Source: an uncultured Ruminococcus sp. | GTDB lineage: Bacteria > Bacillota > Clostridia > Oscillospirales > Ruminococcaceae | Direction of reading: 5' to 3' | DNA: 33,355 nucleotides | Assembly: GCA_902776945.1 (NCBI GenBank) | Contig: CACYSH010000027.1 | Location: forward strand, 1-33,355 | Part shown: piece after piece, positions 1-27,563 of the stretch | Numbering within the stretch: the first letter of the stretch is position 1 | Layout: every line of letters begins with the position of its first letter | Made by a program: the position numbers and the translations under genes | The notes under the pieces: model-generated | Seen by the model: only the letters and a program-made list of their open reading frames with translations | Told to the model about the DNA's origin: nothing | The model's database searches: none

Positions 1-263
1 CCTGCGCCGCCGCCCTGACCCCATTTTCGCCATTGCTTTGCGAGTTCGGCAGCTTTCGGATAATCAAAGTTATATTTATAGTTTTCAACATTTCCAACGC
101 AAATGTTGCGCCTGCGCCGCCGCCCTGACCCCATTTTCGCCCTTGCTTTGCGAGTTCGGCAGCTTTCGGATAATCAAAGTTATATTTATAGTTTTCAACA
201 TTTCCAACACAAAGGTTGCGCCTGCGCCGCCGCCCTGACCCCATTTTCGCCATTGCTTTGCAA
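1..263. repeat. 110-bp tandem repeat, about 2.4 copies
   Basis: A unit of 110 bp starts at 1, 111 and 221, the last copy being cut after about 40 bp. Copies differ at only a few bases. Each unit has a GC-rich head (CCTGCGCCGCCGCCCTGACC) and an AT-rich tail containing TATATTTATAGTTTTCAAC. Because copy one begins at the first base, the array probably extends outside the window. Reading frames through it are repetitive and look non-coding. Function unknown. Confidence 0.9.
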
Positions 264-19937: not shown

Positions 19938-20152
19938 ACTTACAGCAAAACACACACTCATACCAAAAGAACGGACAGACCGTCCCTCTCGCAAGAAAGT
20001 ATAAGCACAAACAGTGTTTCGTTATTACAGCCGCCCGGTTTAAAATCGGACATACTCAGCGGAAATTACCCGACGCACCGCCGGCAACCTCCCGCCTCAT
20101 CGCATATCATTTATTCGTACCGCCATTGCGATACCTTGCAGTCGCAATATAT

Positions 20153-21914: not shown

Positions 21915-22487
21915 CTATATTAGTTTTTTATTCCCAATCTGATATTCTGAATCAAGAGCAGTATTGGCTGCTTTTGATTGTTGGTCATGCAATTGATATT
22001 CAGAATTAGGATTGGTTTTAAACAAAATTGAATCAAAATAAGGTAAAGCTGACTTTGAATAATCTCTTTGATAGCGTTTGGGATGCAGTATCTCAGTTCC
22101 ATTTTTATGATTAATATAGGTGGTTAAATACGCAAGAGCTTCCTTTACTATTCTATCAATATTATCAATCATAGCTCGATATTCATCTCTGTCGATGATA
22201 GCGTTATTGTCTAAATAATCAGTATCAGTTATAATAACCATTTTAGAATAATCTAATCCTGATCTATGAGATCTACTTCTGTTGGTAGCATGAAAATGAA
22301 ACCCGTTGGAATGTCTGATCTCGCTTCTGAATGGTACACAAACAAAATAATCAGAGTGACAATCAATAAGTATACAGTTGTAACCTCTTGTAGGTTTTTC
22401 TAATATTTCAGGGAATTGATCGTGTGGGTAGTCTTGATAAAATTTAGAGGAAAGCTTATAAACTTGATAACAATAATTGAGGTGCAT
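21915..22487 (-). CDS. type III toxin-antitoxin endoribonuclease (ToxN/AbiQ superfamily, TenpN/CptN-like)
   Basis: A 190-residue toxin, expected to be a sequence-specific endoribonuclease that processes its own repeat RNA and is held inactive by it. Segments typical of the superfamily are RGYNCILID (34-42), VPFRSEIRHSNGF (51-63) and GLDYSKMVII (77-86), followed by DEY and helical sequence to about 125. The residues after about 160 look like a variable tail. ATG 22487 lies 10 nt after AGGA; the in-frame TTG at 22496 is too close to that site. Its ribosome binding site touches the U-tail of the upstream terminator, so the toxin is translated only from read-through, the usual type III layout. 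It is clearly AT-rich compared with neighbours, which suggests acquisition. Assignment to the TenpN versus CptN subfamily is uncertain. Confidence 0.85.
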   Translation of the reverse strand: MHLNYCYQVYKLSSKFYQDYPHDQFPEILEKPTRGYNCILIDCHSDYFVCVPFRSEIRHSNGFHFHATNRSRSHRSGLDYSKMVIITDTDYLDNNAIIDRDEYRAMIDNIDRIVKEALAYLTTYINHKNGTEILHPKRYQRDYSKSALPYFDSILFKTNPNSEYQLHDQQSKAANTALDSEYQIGNKKLI

Positions 22488-22501
22488 ATTTATCAAATCC
22501 T

Positions 22502-22537
22502 AAAAAAACAGCGAGGTAAGTTTGCACCAACCCCGCT
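22502..22537 (-). terminator. leaky terminator between antitoxin RNA and toxin gene
   Basis: On the minus strand AGCGGGGT pairs with ACCTCGCT (one G-U) around 12 nt. GTTTTTTT follows, then AGGA and the toxin ATG. Confidence 0.88.
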
Positions 22538-22550
22538 ATAATATTTTCAT

Positions 22551-22658
22551 CGCTCGGTCACGATTTTATTTTACCGACGAGTCAGAACCGTCACTCGTCA
22601 ACTACGCTCGGTCAATTTTTATTTTACCGATGTGTCAGAACCGTCACACATCTTCATC
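22551..22658 (-). repeat. two 54-bp antitoxin repeats
   Basis: CGCTCGGTCA marks the start of each copy at 22551 and 22605. ATTTTACCGA and GTCAGAACCGTCAC are shared; only the hairpin arms and the last 5-8 bp differ. Confidence 0.9.
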
Positions 22659-22665
22659 CGCGATG

Positions 22666-22688
22666 TTGTAAACATTATTTGTTTACAA
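22666..22688. promoter_or_regulatory. palindrome at the antitoxin start site
   Basis: TTGTAAAC (22666-22673) and GTTTACAA (22681-22688) form a perfect inverted repeat around ATTATTT. It overlaps the predicted transcription start, so it could be an operator or a 5' cap hairpin of the RNA. Confidence 0.5.
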
Positions 22689-22692
22689 TTAT

Positions 22693-22721
22693 ATTATATA
22701 CCAAAGTTTGAAATGTGTCAA
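22693..22721 (-). promoter_or_regulatory. promoter of the type III toxin-antitoxin locus
   Basis: Minus-strand -35 TTGACA (22716-22721), a 17-bp spacer, -10 TATAAT (22693-22698). This fully consensus promoter fits the high RNA antitoxin output that such loci need. Confidence 0.88.
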
Positions 22722-22759
22722 TAGGTTTTCGAAAAGATTTTCAGAAAATTTATAATTTA

Positions 22760-22897
22760 TCAACGCTTTATAACTAAAAATACGTTAAAACAGAAAAACA
22801 TCTTAACTAACAAGATAAATCCTGAAACAAAAATGCCAATTAGCAATCCTAAATTAAATTTATCAAGTAATTCAATATTTTCTTCATTTTGCGCATT
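22760..22897 (-). pseudogene. possible remnant encoding a small membrane peptide
   Basis: A frame without a start codon reads 45 residues, including NLGLLIGIFVSGFILLVKMF, a plausible transmembrane helix, then stops with TGA. It is strongly AT-rich like the neighbouring toxin. It may be the tail of a decayed gene brought in with that locus, or chance. The rest of 22722-22914 shows nothing else. Confidence 0.2.
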
Positions 22898-26222: not shown

Positions 26223-27563
26223 TTAAAAAGCCAGCTGTTCATTAACAATATCAAACTGCTTTGCCAGTCTGTGGAACACCTTATCGCTCTCGTCATTCTC
26301 CGGAACCTGCTGCGTCATGATGACCAGCACAAACGGCGAATCCGCATAACATATCGCACAATCATGATAACACACCTGTAACCTGTCCGAACCGTACTTG
26401 TGCGAGACAGGATACTTGTCTTTAAGCTGCGCCGTTATCTGCCGTTCAAATTCGGTCTTCTGCATAAGCTCAGTCAGCCACTTTACGCGCTTGTTCTTTT
26501 TTGCCAGCTTGTAAATGTGGATATATTGCTTCATAAGCTGCCGCGAGGTGCATGGGGTGAATATAAAACCGTCGGTAAGGTAATAATCCGCGCCCGCCTT
26601 ATCGTTGAAATCGTTGAATATCTGCTTGCCGTAGCGGTTCGTAAGATTGAGATACGCCGTGTTGTCCGATTGGATTATAGTATAGCGTATCAGGTCGCGC
26701 ACGGTGTATACTCTGCCGTAGCCGCCCCTTGCCGCCGTACCTGTGATGTTGTCCCACATGGCATTTATTGTTATTTTCTCGTCAAGATCAGCGTCGCTTT
26801 CGAGGAGCGCCGCGCAGTAGGGCGCTTTTATCGTCGAACAGCTTCCGTACCAGGTGTCGGCGCGGTAAAGGCAGCAGGCACCGGTTCGTATATTATAATA
26901 CGCAAAGCTCATTCTGCCGTCGTATTCCGCGCATATCTTGTCGATGCTGGCAAAGGCTTTTTTCAGCTTGTTGTTTGAATAAACGTACTTCGGGAATTTT
27001 TCCGCGCTGAAACTGTGCTTTTTCAACAGCGAGGTTTTCAGCTTCTGCGGCAGACGGAATTTCAGCCCCGAGCCAAGCCCCGAAAGCGTTCCCACGCCCG
27101 CCGTATACCGTCCGAACAGATCTTCGAACGATATTCCGCCCGCGTTGGGCTTTGCCGTACTTACCGTAGTCTCGGCAGGCTTTTCCGTTGCGGCGGTCGT
27201 TGTGGCGGGTGTAGTTGTCGTTGTGGTAGTCGTGGTTGTAGTGGTAGTCGTCGTTGTCGTGGTGGTGGTCGTAGTAGTTGTTGTGACCGGAGCCGCCGTT
27301 GTCGTAACAGTTGTAACCGTCGTATCTGGCGGCACGGAGGTCTCCCCGCCGCTCTCGGCAGGAGCGGTCGTCGTTACGGTCTCGGAGGGCGATGTTGTTT
27401 CGGTAACGGTCTCGGTCACCGTTGTGGCAGTTGTGTATTTGCCCCTTATGATAGCGTTTCCGAGAGGAACGTCCGTCATGCGAAAATCGCTGCCGCAGCA
27501 GGAGGAAAGCATTGCCGCCGCCGCAATAACAGCAGCTATTCTTGTTGAATATAATTTTAGCAT
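26223..27563 (-). CDS. lipoprotein with poly-Thr linker and class A beta-lactamase-like serine hydrolase domain
   Basis: A 446-residue exported protein. A signal peptide ends in the lipobox LSSC (Cys22), so it is lipid-anchored outside the membrane. Residues about 43-140 are a Thr/Ser/Pro-rich spacer with a run of more than 20 threonines (27210-27288), likely a flexible or glycosylated stalk. The C-terminal half has the serine hydrolase triad: Ser243-T-I-Lys246, Ser299-Asp300-Asn301, and Lys389-Tyr-Gly where KTG is usual. This suggests a penicillin-recognising fold, as peptidase, beta-lactamase or wall-related hydrolase; the KTG change makes true beta-lactamase activity doubtful. AAAGGTGA precedes the ATG. 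Confidence 0.85.
   Translation of the reverse strand: MLKLYSTRIAAVIAAAAMLSSCCGSDFRMTDVPLGNAIIRGKYTTATTVTETVTETTSPSETVTTTAPAESGGETSVPPDTTVTTVTTTAAPVTTTTTTTTTTTTTTTTTTTTTTTTTPATTTAATEKPAETTVSTAKPNAGGISFEDLFGRYTAGVGTLSGLGSGLKFRLPQKLKTSLLKKHSFSAEKFPKYVYSNNKLKKAFASIDKICAEYDGRMSFAYYNIRTGACCLYRADTWYGSCSTIKAPYCAALLESDADLDEKITINAMWDNITGTAARGGYGRVYTVRDLIRYTIIQSDNTAYLNLTNRYGKQIFNDFNDKAGADYYLTDGFIFTPCTSRQLMKQYIHIYKLAKKNKRVKWLTELMQKTEFERQITAQLKDKYPVSHKYGSDRLQVCYHDCAICYADSPFVLVIMTQQVPENDESDKVFHRLAKQFDIVNEQLAF

What the first reader, a model, noticed from the sequence alone, without database searches (positions are those of the whole stretch)
21915..22721. Complete type III toxin-antitoxin locus next to core genes
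In one 800-bp AT-rich stretch the minus strand has a consensus promoter, a non-coding repeat RNA, an intrinsic terminator, and a ribosome binding site touching the terminator tail. A gene with ToxN/AbiQ-superfamily motifs (VPFRSEIRH, GLDYSKMVII) follows. Type III systems (ToxIN, TenpIN, CptIN) are established as RNA-inhibited endoribonucleases, several of which block phage. The repeat sequence is not one I recognise, so it may be a new antitoxin specificity.
Basis: partly seen in the sequence, partly recalled or inferred. Interest (0 to 1): 0.85.

Follow-up and report, generated by a model that had tools for sequence, protein, structure and literature searches.

The report
Bacterial toxin–RNA antitoxin copied by phages
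The stretch is a bacterial toxin gene kept silent by a small knotted RNA, a known kind of phage-defence module, and the same RNA also turns up without the toxin in several virus contigs, which suggests that phages carry it to disarm the defence.

Summary
21915-22721 (minus strand) is a complete type III toxin-antitoxin locus of the TenpIN family (NCBIfam NF047358, 156.6 bits, cut-off 90): perfect sigma-70 promoter, 5' hairpin, two antitoxin units 53 nt apart, terminator, RBS, 190-aa toxin. The locus itself is a new member of a known kind. Its antitoxin is not a new specificity: bacteria of its family and order, a Streptococcus and virus contigs carry the same repeat.

Comparing 32 distinct units supports an H-type pseudoknot: five of seven stem-1 pairs and one of five stem-2 pairs show changes on both sides. 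A covarying closing helix joins the leader to the tail of the last unit.

Unexpectedly, 27 IMG/VR contigs hold this repeat, yet only 2 hold the toxin and one has a remnant. The other 24 carry toxin-less units in seven separate contexts; 19 of the 24 loci hold tRNA genes. These units keep their stems nearly intact and score like bacterial ones. I read them as phage RNA decoys against TenpN, comparable to phiTE pseudo-ToxI. That function is inferred, not tested.

The parts
22693..22721 (-). Sigma-70 promoter TTGACA-17-TATAAT
   Evidence: 12 of 12 consensus positions
22666..22688 (-). 5' hairpin near the predicted start of the transcript
   Evidence: Fold z -3.78, 0 of 200 shuffles as good
22660..22665 (-). 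5' strand of closing helix (CAUCGC)
   Evidence: Pairs with 22553-22548; own leader/tail pairs beat mismatched ones over 14 loci, 0 of 20000 permutations as high; better with the last unit's tail than the first in 12 of 13 loci, 1 equal
22609..22652 (-). Antitoxin unit 1: H-type pseudoknot (S1 22652-22646/22635-22629; S2 22643-22639/22613-22609)
   Evidence: R1 model 79.4 bits (a training sequence)
22555..22599 (-). Antitoxin unit 2: H-type pseudoknot with a different but fully paired S1 (GACGAGU/ACUCGUC)
   Evidence: R1 model 71.2 bits (a training sequence)
22548..22553 (-). 3' strand of closing helix (GCGAUG), in the tail of unit 2
22502..22539 (-). Intrinsic terminator: stem 22539-22508 and T tract to 22502
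   Evidence: -17.7 kcal/mol, z -5.85
22498..22501 (-). Ribosome binding site AGGA, directly after the T tract
   Evidence: Read from the sequence
21915..22487 (-). tenpN toxin gene, 190 aa from ATG 22487, predicted endoribonuclease
   Evidence: NCBIfam NF047358 TenpIN, 156.6 bits, E 4.5e-46, cut-off 90

Best explanation
A chromosomal TenpIN type III toxin-antitoxin system. One promoter makes a short RNA: a 5' hairpin, then two H-type pseudoknots held together by a closing helix, ending at a terminator (shown as sequence, folding and covariation). Occasional read-through makes TenpN, an RNase that cuts the precursor between units and is held inactive by the freed pseudoknots (inferred from the family). 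When phage takeover stops antitoxin supply, TenpN is freed, cuts RNA and aborts infection (inferred from other type III systems). Phages answer by carrying toxin-less antitoxin units, often in or beside their tRNA arrays and in several cases closed by their own helix, that would soak up TenpN (presence shown, function inferred).
For: Toxin family match. Promoter, units, terminator and RBS in the type III order, as described in PMC5086642 (text seen). The same RNA precedes the toxin in relatives 44-52% identical to it (L002, 52%, is cut off by its contig end). Pseudoknot: 98.7% of cells paired and 35 cells with changes on both sides, against 88.5% and 9.3 in shuffles; the rival local hairpin has none. 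Closing helix. In 337 genomes of the family the RNA model found 4, each with two units, and these four are the window's genome and those of L004-L006, which have tenpN. Phage units.
Against: No expression, toxicity or neutralisation data exist here. No solved structure matches convincingly by sequence. The window toxin has a C-terminal tail of roughly 30 residues that most relatives lack. PADLOC does not recognise it. For the decoy step: strict patterns for two other TenpI repeat types gave no hit in the virus collection; two orphan types (L039/L041, L037) have a broken S2 pair and L064 an imperfect S1; another virus contig, L067, has the repeat with the toxin and was missed by my pattern; the hosts of these phages are unknown.
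Confidence: 0.9

Rival explanations
1. The phage units are leftovers of complete TenpIN systems that lost the toxin and have no present function.
For: L054 is an antitoxin pair followed by terminator, RBS and only a short remnant that starts like tenpN, so this path exists. L059, in a bacterial genome, is one unit with a terminator-like hairpin and no toxin. L037, L039/L041 and L064 have imperfect stems.
Against: Virus orphan units score 62.6-80 bits (L064: 47.8; the third unit of L047: 25) under a model trained without them, against 58.5-79.6 for units beside toxins, and apart from L064 keep S1 fully paired, also in variants not seen beside a toxin such as GACGUGU/ACACGUC. Between phages L030 and L031 the unit is 46/49 identical while the flanks are 11/26 and 58/124. 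They sit in seven separate contexts.
Confidence: 0.2
2. The phage units serve the phage's own RNA processing: the host RNase TenpN, or another host RNase, would cut the tRNA array at the unit.
For: 19 of 24 orphan loci hold tRNA genes, and the units I compared there lie between or beside tRNAs on the tRNA strand.
Against: The toxin is rare in the bacteria sampled: over the cut-off in 7 of 396 family genomes, though the phages' hosts are unknown. Orphans L029, L037, L043, L047 and L055 have no tRNA in the fetched locus.
Confidence: 0.07
3. The 21915-22487 ORF is not an active toxin: a degenerate or domesticated relative.
For: Unusual C-terminal tail; single copy in the genome and absent from the other 12 genomes of the genus.
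Against: The 17 columns invariant in A4, which includes the window protein, show no loss of a shared residue; no stop inside the match; promoter, RNA and terminator all present.
Confidence: 0.06

Closest known systems
TenpIN of Photorhabdus luminescens (type III TA, phage abortive infection)
   Same: Same toxin family by NCBIfam model; same order promoter-repeats-terminator-toxin (PMC5086642, sections and passages seen; PMC5377504, passages seen).
   Different: A branch with its own repeat, in a genome that carries an S10-Clostridia leader. I did not compare the Photorhabdus repeat itself; the 2012 classification paper is not held.
CptIN of Eubacterium rectale
   Same: Antitoxin is an H-type pseudoknot of 45 nt with a long second loop making A-minor contacts; a single repeat neutralises (PMC4627078, passages seen). 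The TenpI core here is 42-45 nt.
   Different: Different toxin family: only TenpIN was hit in NCBIfam up to E 10. A closing helix around the array is not mentioned in the passages I saw.
Pseudo-ToxI of phage phiTE
   Same: Phage-encoded, toxin-less copy of a type III antitoxin, acting as an RNA mimic (PMC3475682, abstract and passages seen).
   Different: Another TA family and other phages. Wild-type phiTE carries 1.5 DNA repeats that do not encode one full unit and must expand; most units here are complete with fully paired stems, and several are closed by their own helix in or beside tRNA arrays.
Racr RNA anti-CRISPRs (solitary repeat units in phages)
   Same: Solitary copies of a defence RNA repeat in viral genomes that jam the host system (PMC10651486, passages of abstract and main text seen).
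   Different: The target there is CRISPR-Cas; here it would be an RNase toxin.

Membership tests
TenpIN (type III TA) | Toxin matches the TenpIN toxin family | tested here: met
   NF047358, 156.6 bits, cut-off 90
TenpIN (type III TA) | Tandem antitoxin repeats upstream on the same strand | tested here: met
   Two units 53 nt apart
TenpIN (type III TA) | Intrinsic terminator between repeats and toxin | tested here: met
   not reported by the scanner
TenpIN (type III TA) | Antitoxin unit folds as a pseudoknot (all type III antitoxins crystallised by 2016, PMC5086642, passage) | tested here: met
   Covariation in S1 and S2; S2 rests on one pair with 3 rows from 2 loci
TenpIN (type III TA) | Toxin is an RNase that cuts its own antitoxin | not testable with these tools
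   Inferred from the family only
TenpIN (type III TA) | RNA neutralises the toxin; locus protects against phage | not testable with these tools
   Needs bench work
ToxIN (Pfam ToxN_toxin / AbiQ) | Protein matches PF13958 or AbiQ | tested here: not met
   No match for the window protein up to E 10; 1 of 17 relatives each at 0.0055 and 0.009
CptIN | Protein matches a CptIN model | tested here: inconclusive
   Only TenpIN was hit in NCBIfam; I did not check that a CptIN model is in that library
Phage antitoxin mimic (pseudo-ToxI kind), for the virus units | Antitoxin unit in a phage without the toxin | tested here: met
   26 of 28 records without the toxin family; 22 of 28 with terminase family phrog_2; records may be fragments
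Phage antitoxin mimic (pseudo-ToxI kind), for the virus units | Suppresses the host toxin | not testable with these tools
   Bench test needed

The most novel reading that the evidence does not exclude
Phages (hosts not determined) carry complete TenpI pseudoknots, mostly in or beside their tRNA arrays and in several cases closed by their own helix, as ready-made RNA inhibitors of host TenpN. At least one (L043) adds a second pseudoknot with another loop and stem 2 exactly one repeat length further on, which would be a mixed decoy array against more than one toxin specificity.
Probability: 0.6. Interest if true: 0.78.

Novelty: new variant of a known kind. Interest (0 to 1): 0.62.

Why it matters
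The window locus itself is an ordinary new member of TenpIN. Three things go beyond that. First, a covariation-based structure for a TenpI antitoxin; I found no convincing TenpN relative among solved structures by sequence. Second, a closing helix around the array, which may keep the precursor ordered before cutting. Third, natural toxin-less units in several separate virus contexts. If the third is right, phages carry RNA inhibitors of an abortive-infection toxin in advance, many of them in tRNA arrays. This can be tested directly with a toxicity rescue in laboratory E. coli.

Tried and rejected
Local hairpin CGGU...ACCG after stem 1: rejected, no covariation and 10 of 32 rows unpaired at one of its pairs.

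New antitoxin specificity: rejected, the repeat is shared.

Known Rfam family: at gathering scores the window has only an S10 leader elsewhere; six weak matches at E 1.7-6.8 in 22400-22800 judged chance.

Orphan units as part of a known RNA family: no Rfam match covers them in the 18 loci scanned (16 of the 27 virus loci, plus L057 and L059), nor with laxer thresholds in 5 virus loci.

Decoys of other TenpI repeat types: none with two strict patterns. Alternative stem-2 letters: 24 contigs, all already among the 27.

Other collections: the two-unit query gave one convincing phage record (L064, 8e-8); L065 and the weaker hits (E 0.9 and above) lack the unit or were not pursued. Plasmids gave one chance-like 22-base hit.

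Empty-site comparison in the genus: not possible, the neighbours are not conserved.

A search for relatives of the second L043 pseudoknot used a mis-spaced pattern and is worthless; the corrected one was run only on held loci and found L043 itself.

Generic pseudoknot scan of ten regions: it recovered most TenpI units, the second L043 pseudoknot and three doubtful others; shuffles gave 0-0.4 hits a region. It listed one of the two window units and missed L037.

Closing helix tested singly against shuffled flanks: only L042 (0.008) and L059 (0.022) fall below 0.05 among 12 orphan units, and none of 12 units beside a toxin. The support comes from the joint tests.

Structure prediction never ran.

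Full report
1. What is there. On the minus strand, 22721-21915 reads: perfect sigma-70 promoter, 5' hairpin 22688-22666, two antitoxin units (cores 22652-22609 and 22599-22555), terminator 22539-22502, AGGA, and a 190-aa ORF from ATG 22487. The leader RNA 22690-22490 folds better than all 200 shuffles (z -3.40).

2. The protein. NCBIfam gives one family up to E 10: NF047358 TenpIN toxin, 4.5e-46, 156.6 bits against a cut-off of 90. Pfam and PADLOC give nothing for it. PHROGs give three: one of unknown function (1.7e-15), a weak MazF-like one (0.019) and another unknown (0.062). The best solved chain is at E 0.05 (a pancreatic RNase) for the protein and 0.51 for the profile, neither convincing. 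Among 17 family members, one touches Pfam ToxN_toxin (0.0055) and one PADLOC AbiQ (0.009), among other weak hits that look unrelated. Of eight relatives tested, seven pass the TenpIN cut-off; the Listeria plasmid protein L027 does not (73.3 bits).

3. Distribution. The toxin family matches at E 0.001 in 1 of 13 genomes of the genus (its own), 9 of 396 of the family (7 over the cut-off), 9 of 394 of the order (7 over) and 8 of 398 of the phylum (2 over). These samples overlap. It also occurs on plasmids (36 records, all under 60% identity), in 2 phage records and in 15 virus loci found with the alignment. So it is a rare gene with a patchy, mobile-looking distribution.

4. The antitoxin is shared. 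I read the DNA upstream of 15 toxins, the window's own included. Seven have the window's repeat (the window, L003-L006, L019, L020). L021 and L022 share another kind, and L007, L008, L012 and L023 a third. L009 shows none that I recognised, and L002 is cut off by its contig end. Toxins 44-52% identical to the window toxin go with its repeat (L002, 52%, unknown), and those near 30% with others, as the review says of toxin and antitoxin (PMC5086642, section seen). L003 is a Streptococcus.

5. Structure of the unit. Units were collected by a motif plus at least 4 of 7 stem-1 pairs, which favours paired stems; 54 units gave 32 distinct ones, aligned as A3. The AACGG unit of L055, the second unit of L067 and the third of L047 did not fit the motif and are not in A3. 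Stem 1 (7 pairs) has changes on both sides at 5 pairs. Stem 2, loop CGGUU with downstream GACCG, has 3 such rows at one pair (U-A to C-G, in L006 and L020) and U-G/U-A changes at another. In all, 98.7% of cells pair, against 88.5% in shuffles and at most 50.7% in slid versions; the count of further pair types does not discriminate (9 against 8.3). Twenty units from loci with a toxin (A5; three rows from the virus contig L038, one from L067) give the same picture. The rival local hairpin has no covarying pair. Caveats: shuffles ignore relatedness, and stem 2 rests on few events. The loop and the A-rich stretch are nearly invariant, as expected of toxin contacts (inference).

6. Different stems in one array. 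Among 12 loci beside a toxin or its remnant with two or more tabulated units, 8 have units that differ in stem 1 but keep it paired (window, L004, L005, L019, L020, L038 with one mismatch in one unit, L054, L056), and 4 have the same stem (L003, L006, L048, L060); L067 is not fully tabulated. A simple reason would be to stop arms of neighbouring units from pairing with each other (inference). L057 has a toxin and only one detected unit, so one unit may be enough. For CptIN a single repeat was reported to neutralise fully (PMC4627078, passage).

7. Closing helix. In the window CAUCGC (22665-22660) can pair with GCGAUG (22553-22548) in the tail of unit 2; the plain fold shows it. Across 14 loci with a toxin or remnant, leaders pair better with their own last tail than with others' (mean score 10.86 against 8.09, 0 of 20000 permutations as high; shuffled tails 6.77), although in L067 the best helix is not at the usual place. 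For 11 orphan contexts it is 8.32 against 6.76, p 0.0065 (1 of 200 shuffles as high); L029, L036, L037, L047 and L064 show no convincing helix, and L029, L030 and L031 are from one phage group. In 12 of 13 multi-unit loci the leader pairs better with the last tail than with the first, and in one equally. Tested one by one against shuffled flanks, most units are not significant. I have not seen this feature mentioned in the passages I read.

8. The virus collection. The 31-letter pattern of the unit hits 27 IMG/VR contigs. The same pattern read backwards hits none. A looser pattern gives the same 27. Whole-record search finds the toxin family in 2 of 28 records (27 contigs plus MT835481.1): those of L038 and L048. 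L054 has two units, terminator, RBS and then only a short remnant beginning like tenpN. That leaves 24 contigs with units and no toxin. In the complete loci read, the toxin starts within about 100 bases of the last unit. Records can be fragments, but each of the 24 loci has more than 600 bases held downstream of the unit, and tblastn with 17 TenpN proteins finds none there. One further virus contig, L067, has both toxin and repeat and was missed by the pattern, because its stem 1 ends in A-U. Terminase family phrog_2 matches 22 of 28 records; those of L029, L036, L037, L038, L042 and L043 have none. Phrog_2 also matches 11 of 14 control bacterial genomes, so it supports phage origin but does not prove it.

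9. Independence. Clustering the flanks with units masked gives 11 clusters for 28 records. The 24 orphans fall into seven: one group of 17 (L029-L035, L039-L041, L044-L046, L049-L051, L053), one of two (L036, L052), and five singles (L037, L042, L043, L047, L055). MT835481.1 (L064), from human faeces, is an eighth, with 5 of 7 stem-1 pairs. Members of the big group resemble SPbeta-like Bacillus phages only weakly (66-72% over a few hundred bases); hosts are not known. 19 of the 24 orphan loci hold tRNA genes. In L030 the unit lies between tRNA-Phe and tRNA-Lys, on the tRNA strand.

10. Signs of selection. A model trained without the orphan units (R1) gives the virus orphans 62.6-80 bits (L064 47.8, third unit of L047 25), against 58.5-79.6 for units beside toxins, many of which are training rows. 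L030 and L031 agree at 46 of 49 positions in the unit but 11 of 26 and 58 of 124 in the flanks. Against: L039 and L041 have a broken end pair in stem 2, and L037 a broken middle one.

11. Contrast with bacteria. R1 over 337 genomes of the family finds the RNA in 4, each time as two units (strict filters); these are the window's genome and those of L004-L006, which have the toxin. The letter pattern over 381 genomes of the class hits 5; the toxin is found beside it in 4 and not in L059. So in the bacteria sampled the RNA mostly goes with the toxin, and in the virus contigs mostly not.

12. Interpretation. The locus works like, and by every feature that I could test is, a TenpIN system (confidence 0.9). 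The virus units most likely act as decoys for TenpN (0.6). Precedents are phiTE pseudo-ToxI (PMC3475682, passages) and Racr solitary repeats (PMC10651486, passages). In the eight paper searches I saw no listing that reports TenpI units in phages; these cover only the held open-access library, the listings were capped, and the 2012 classification paper is not held. The main rival is decay of full systems, for which L054 is a real example.

Noticed in passing
L043 3425-3460 (minus strand): A second H-type pseudoknot with another loop and stem 2 lies exactly 53 nt after the TenpI unit, and both are enclosed by a 10-bp helix: possible decoy of another specificity.
   Followed up: partly
L047 2510-2662: Three units in a row without toxin; the third is diverged (25 bits).
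   Followed up: no
L054 7703-7805 and downstream: Complete antitoxin, terminator and RBS followed by a short remnant that begins like tenpN: a system caught decaying. A FuFi-1 RNA match lies nearby on the other strand.
   Followed up: partly
L036 773-842, L052 1201-1270, L042 11103-11175: Rfam 'skipping-rope' RNA lies close to orphan TenpI units beside phage tRNA genes.
   Followed up: no
L030 13681-14089; L051 11089-11510: tRNA arrays of these virus contigs also contain a tmRNA (L030; L051: only).
   Followed up: no
window 21918-22016: The toxin has a C-terminal tail of roughly 30 residues absent from most relatives; the closest one (L048/L066, 58% identical) matches up to residue 169.
   Followed up: no
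L059 1494-1543: A solitary TenpI unit with terminator-like hairpin and no toxin in a bacterial genome.
   Followed up: no
window 20028-20109: S10-Clostridia ribosomal protein leader, upstream of the ribosomal protein genes.
   Followed up: no
window 1-261: 2.4 copies of a 110-base repeat at the contig end, 97% matches.
   Followed up: no
window 27186-27285: Low-complexity repeat encoding a threonine-rich linker in the ORF 26223-27563.
   Followed up: no
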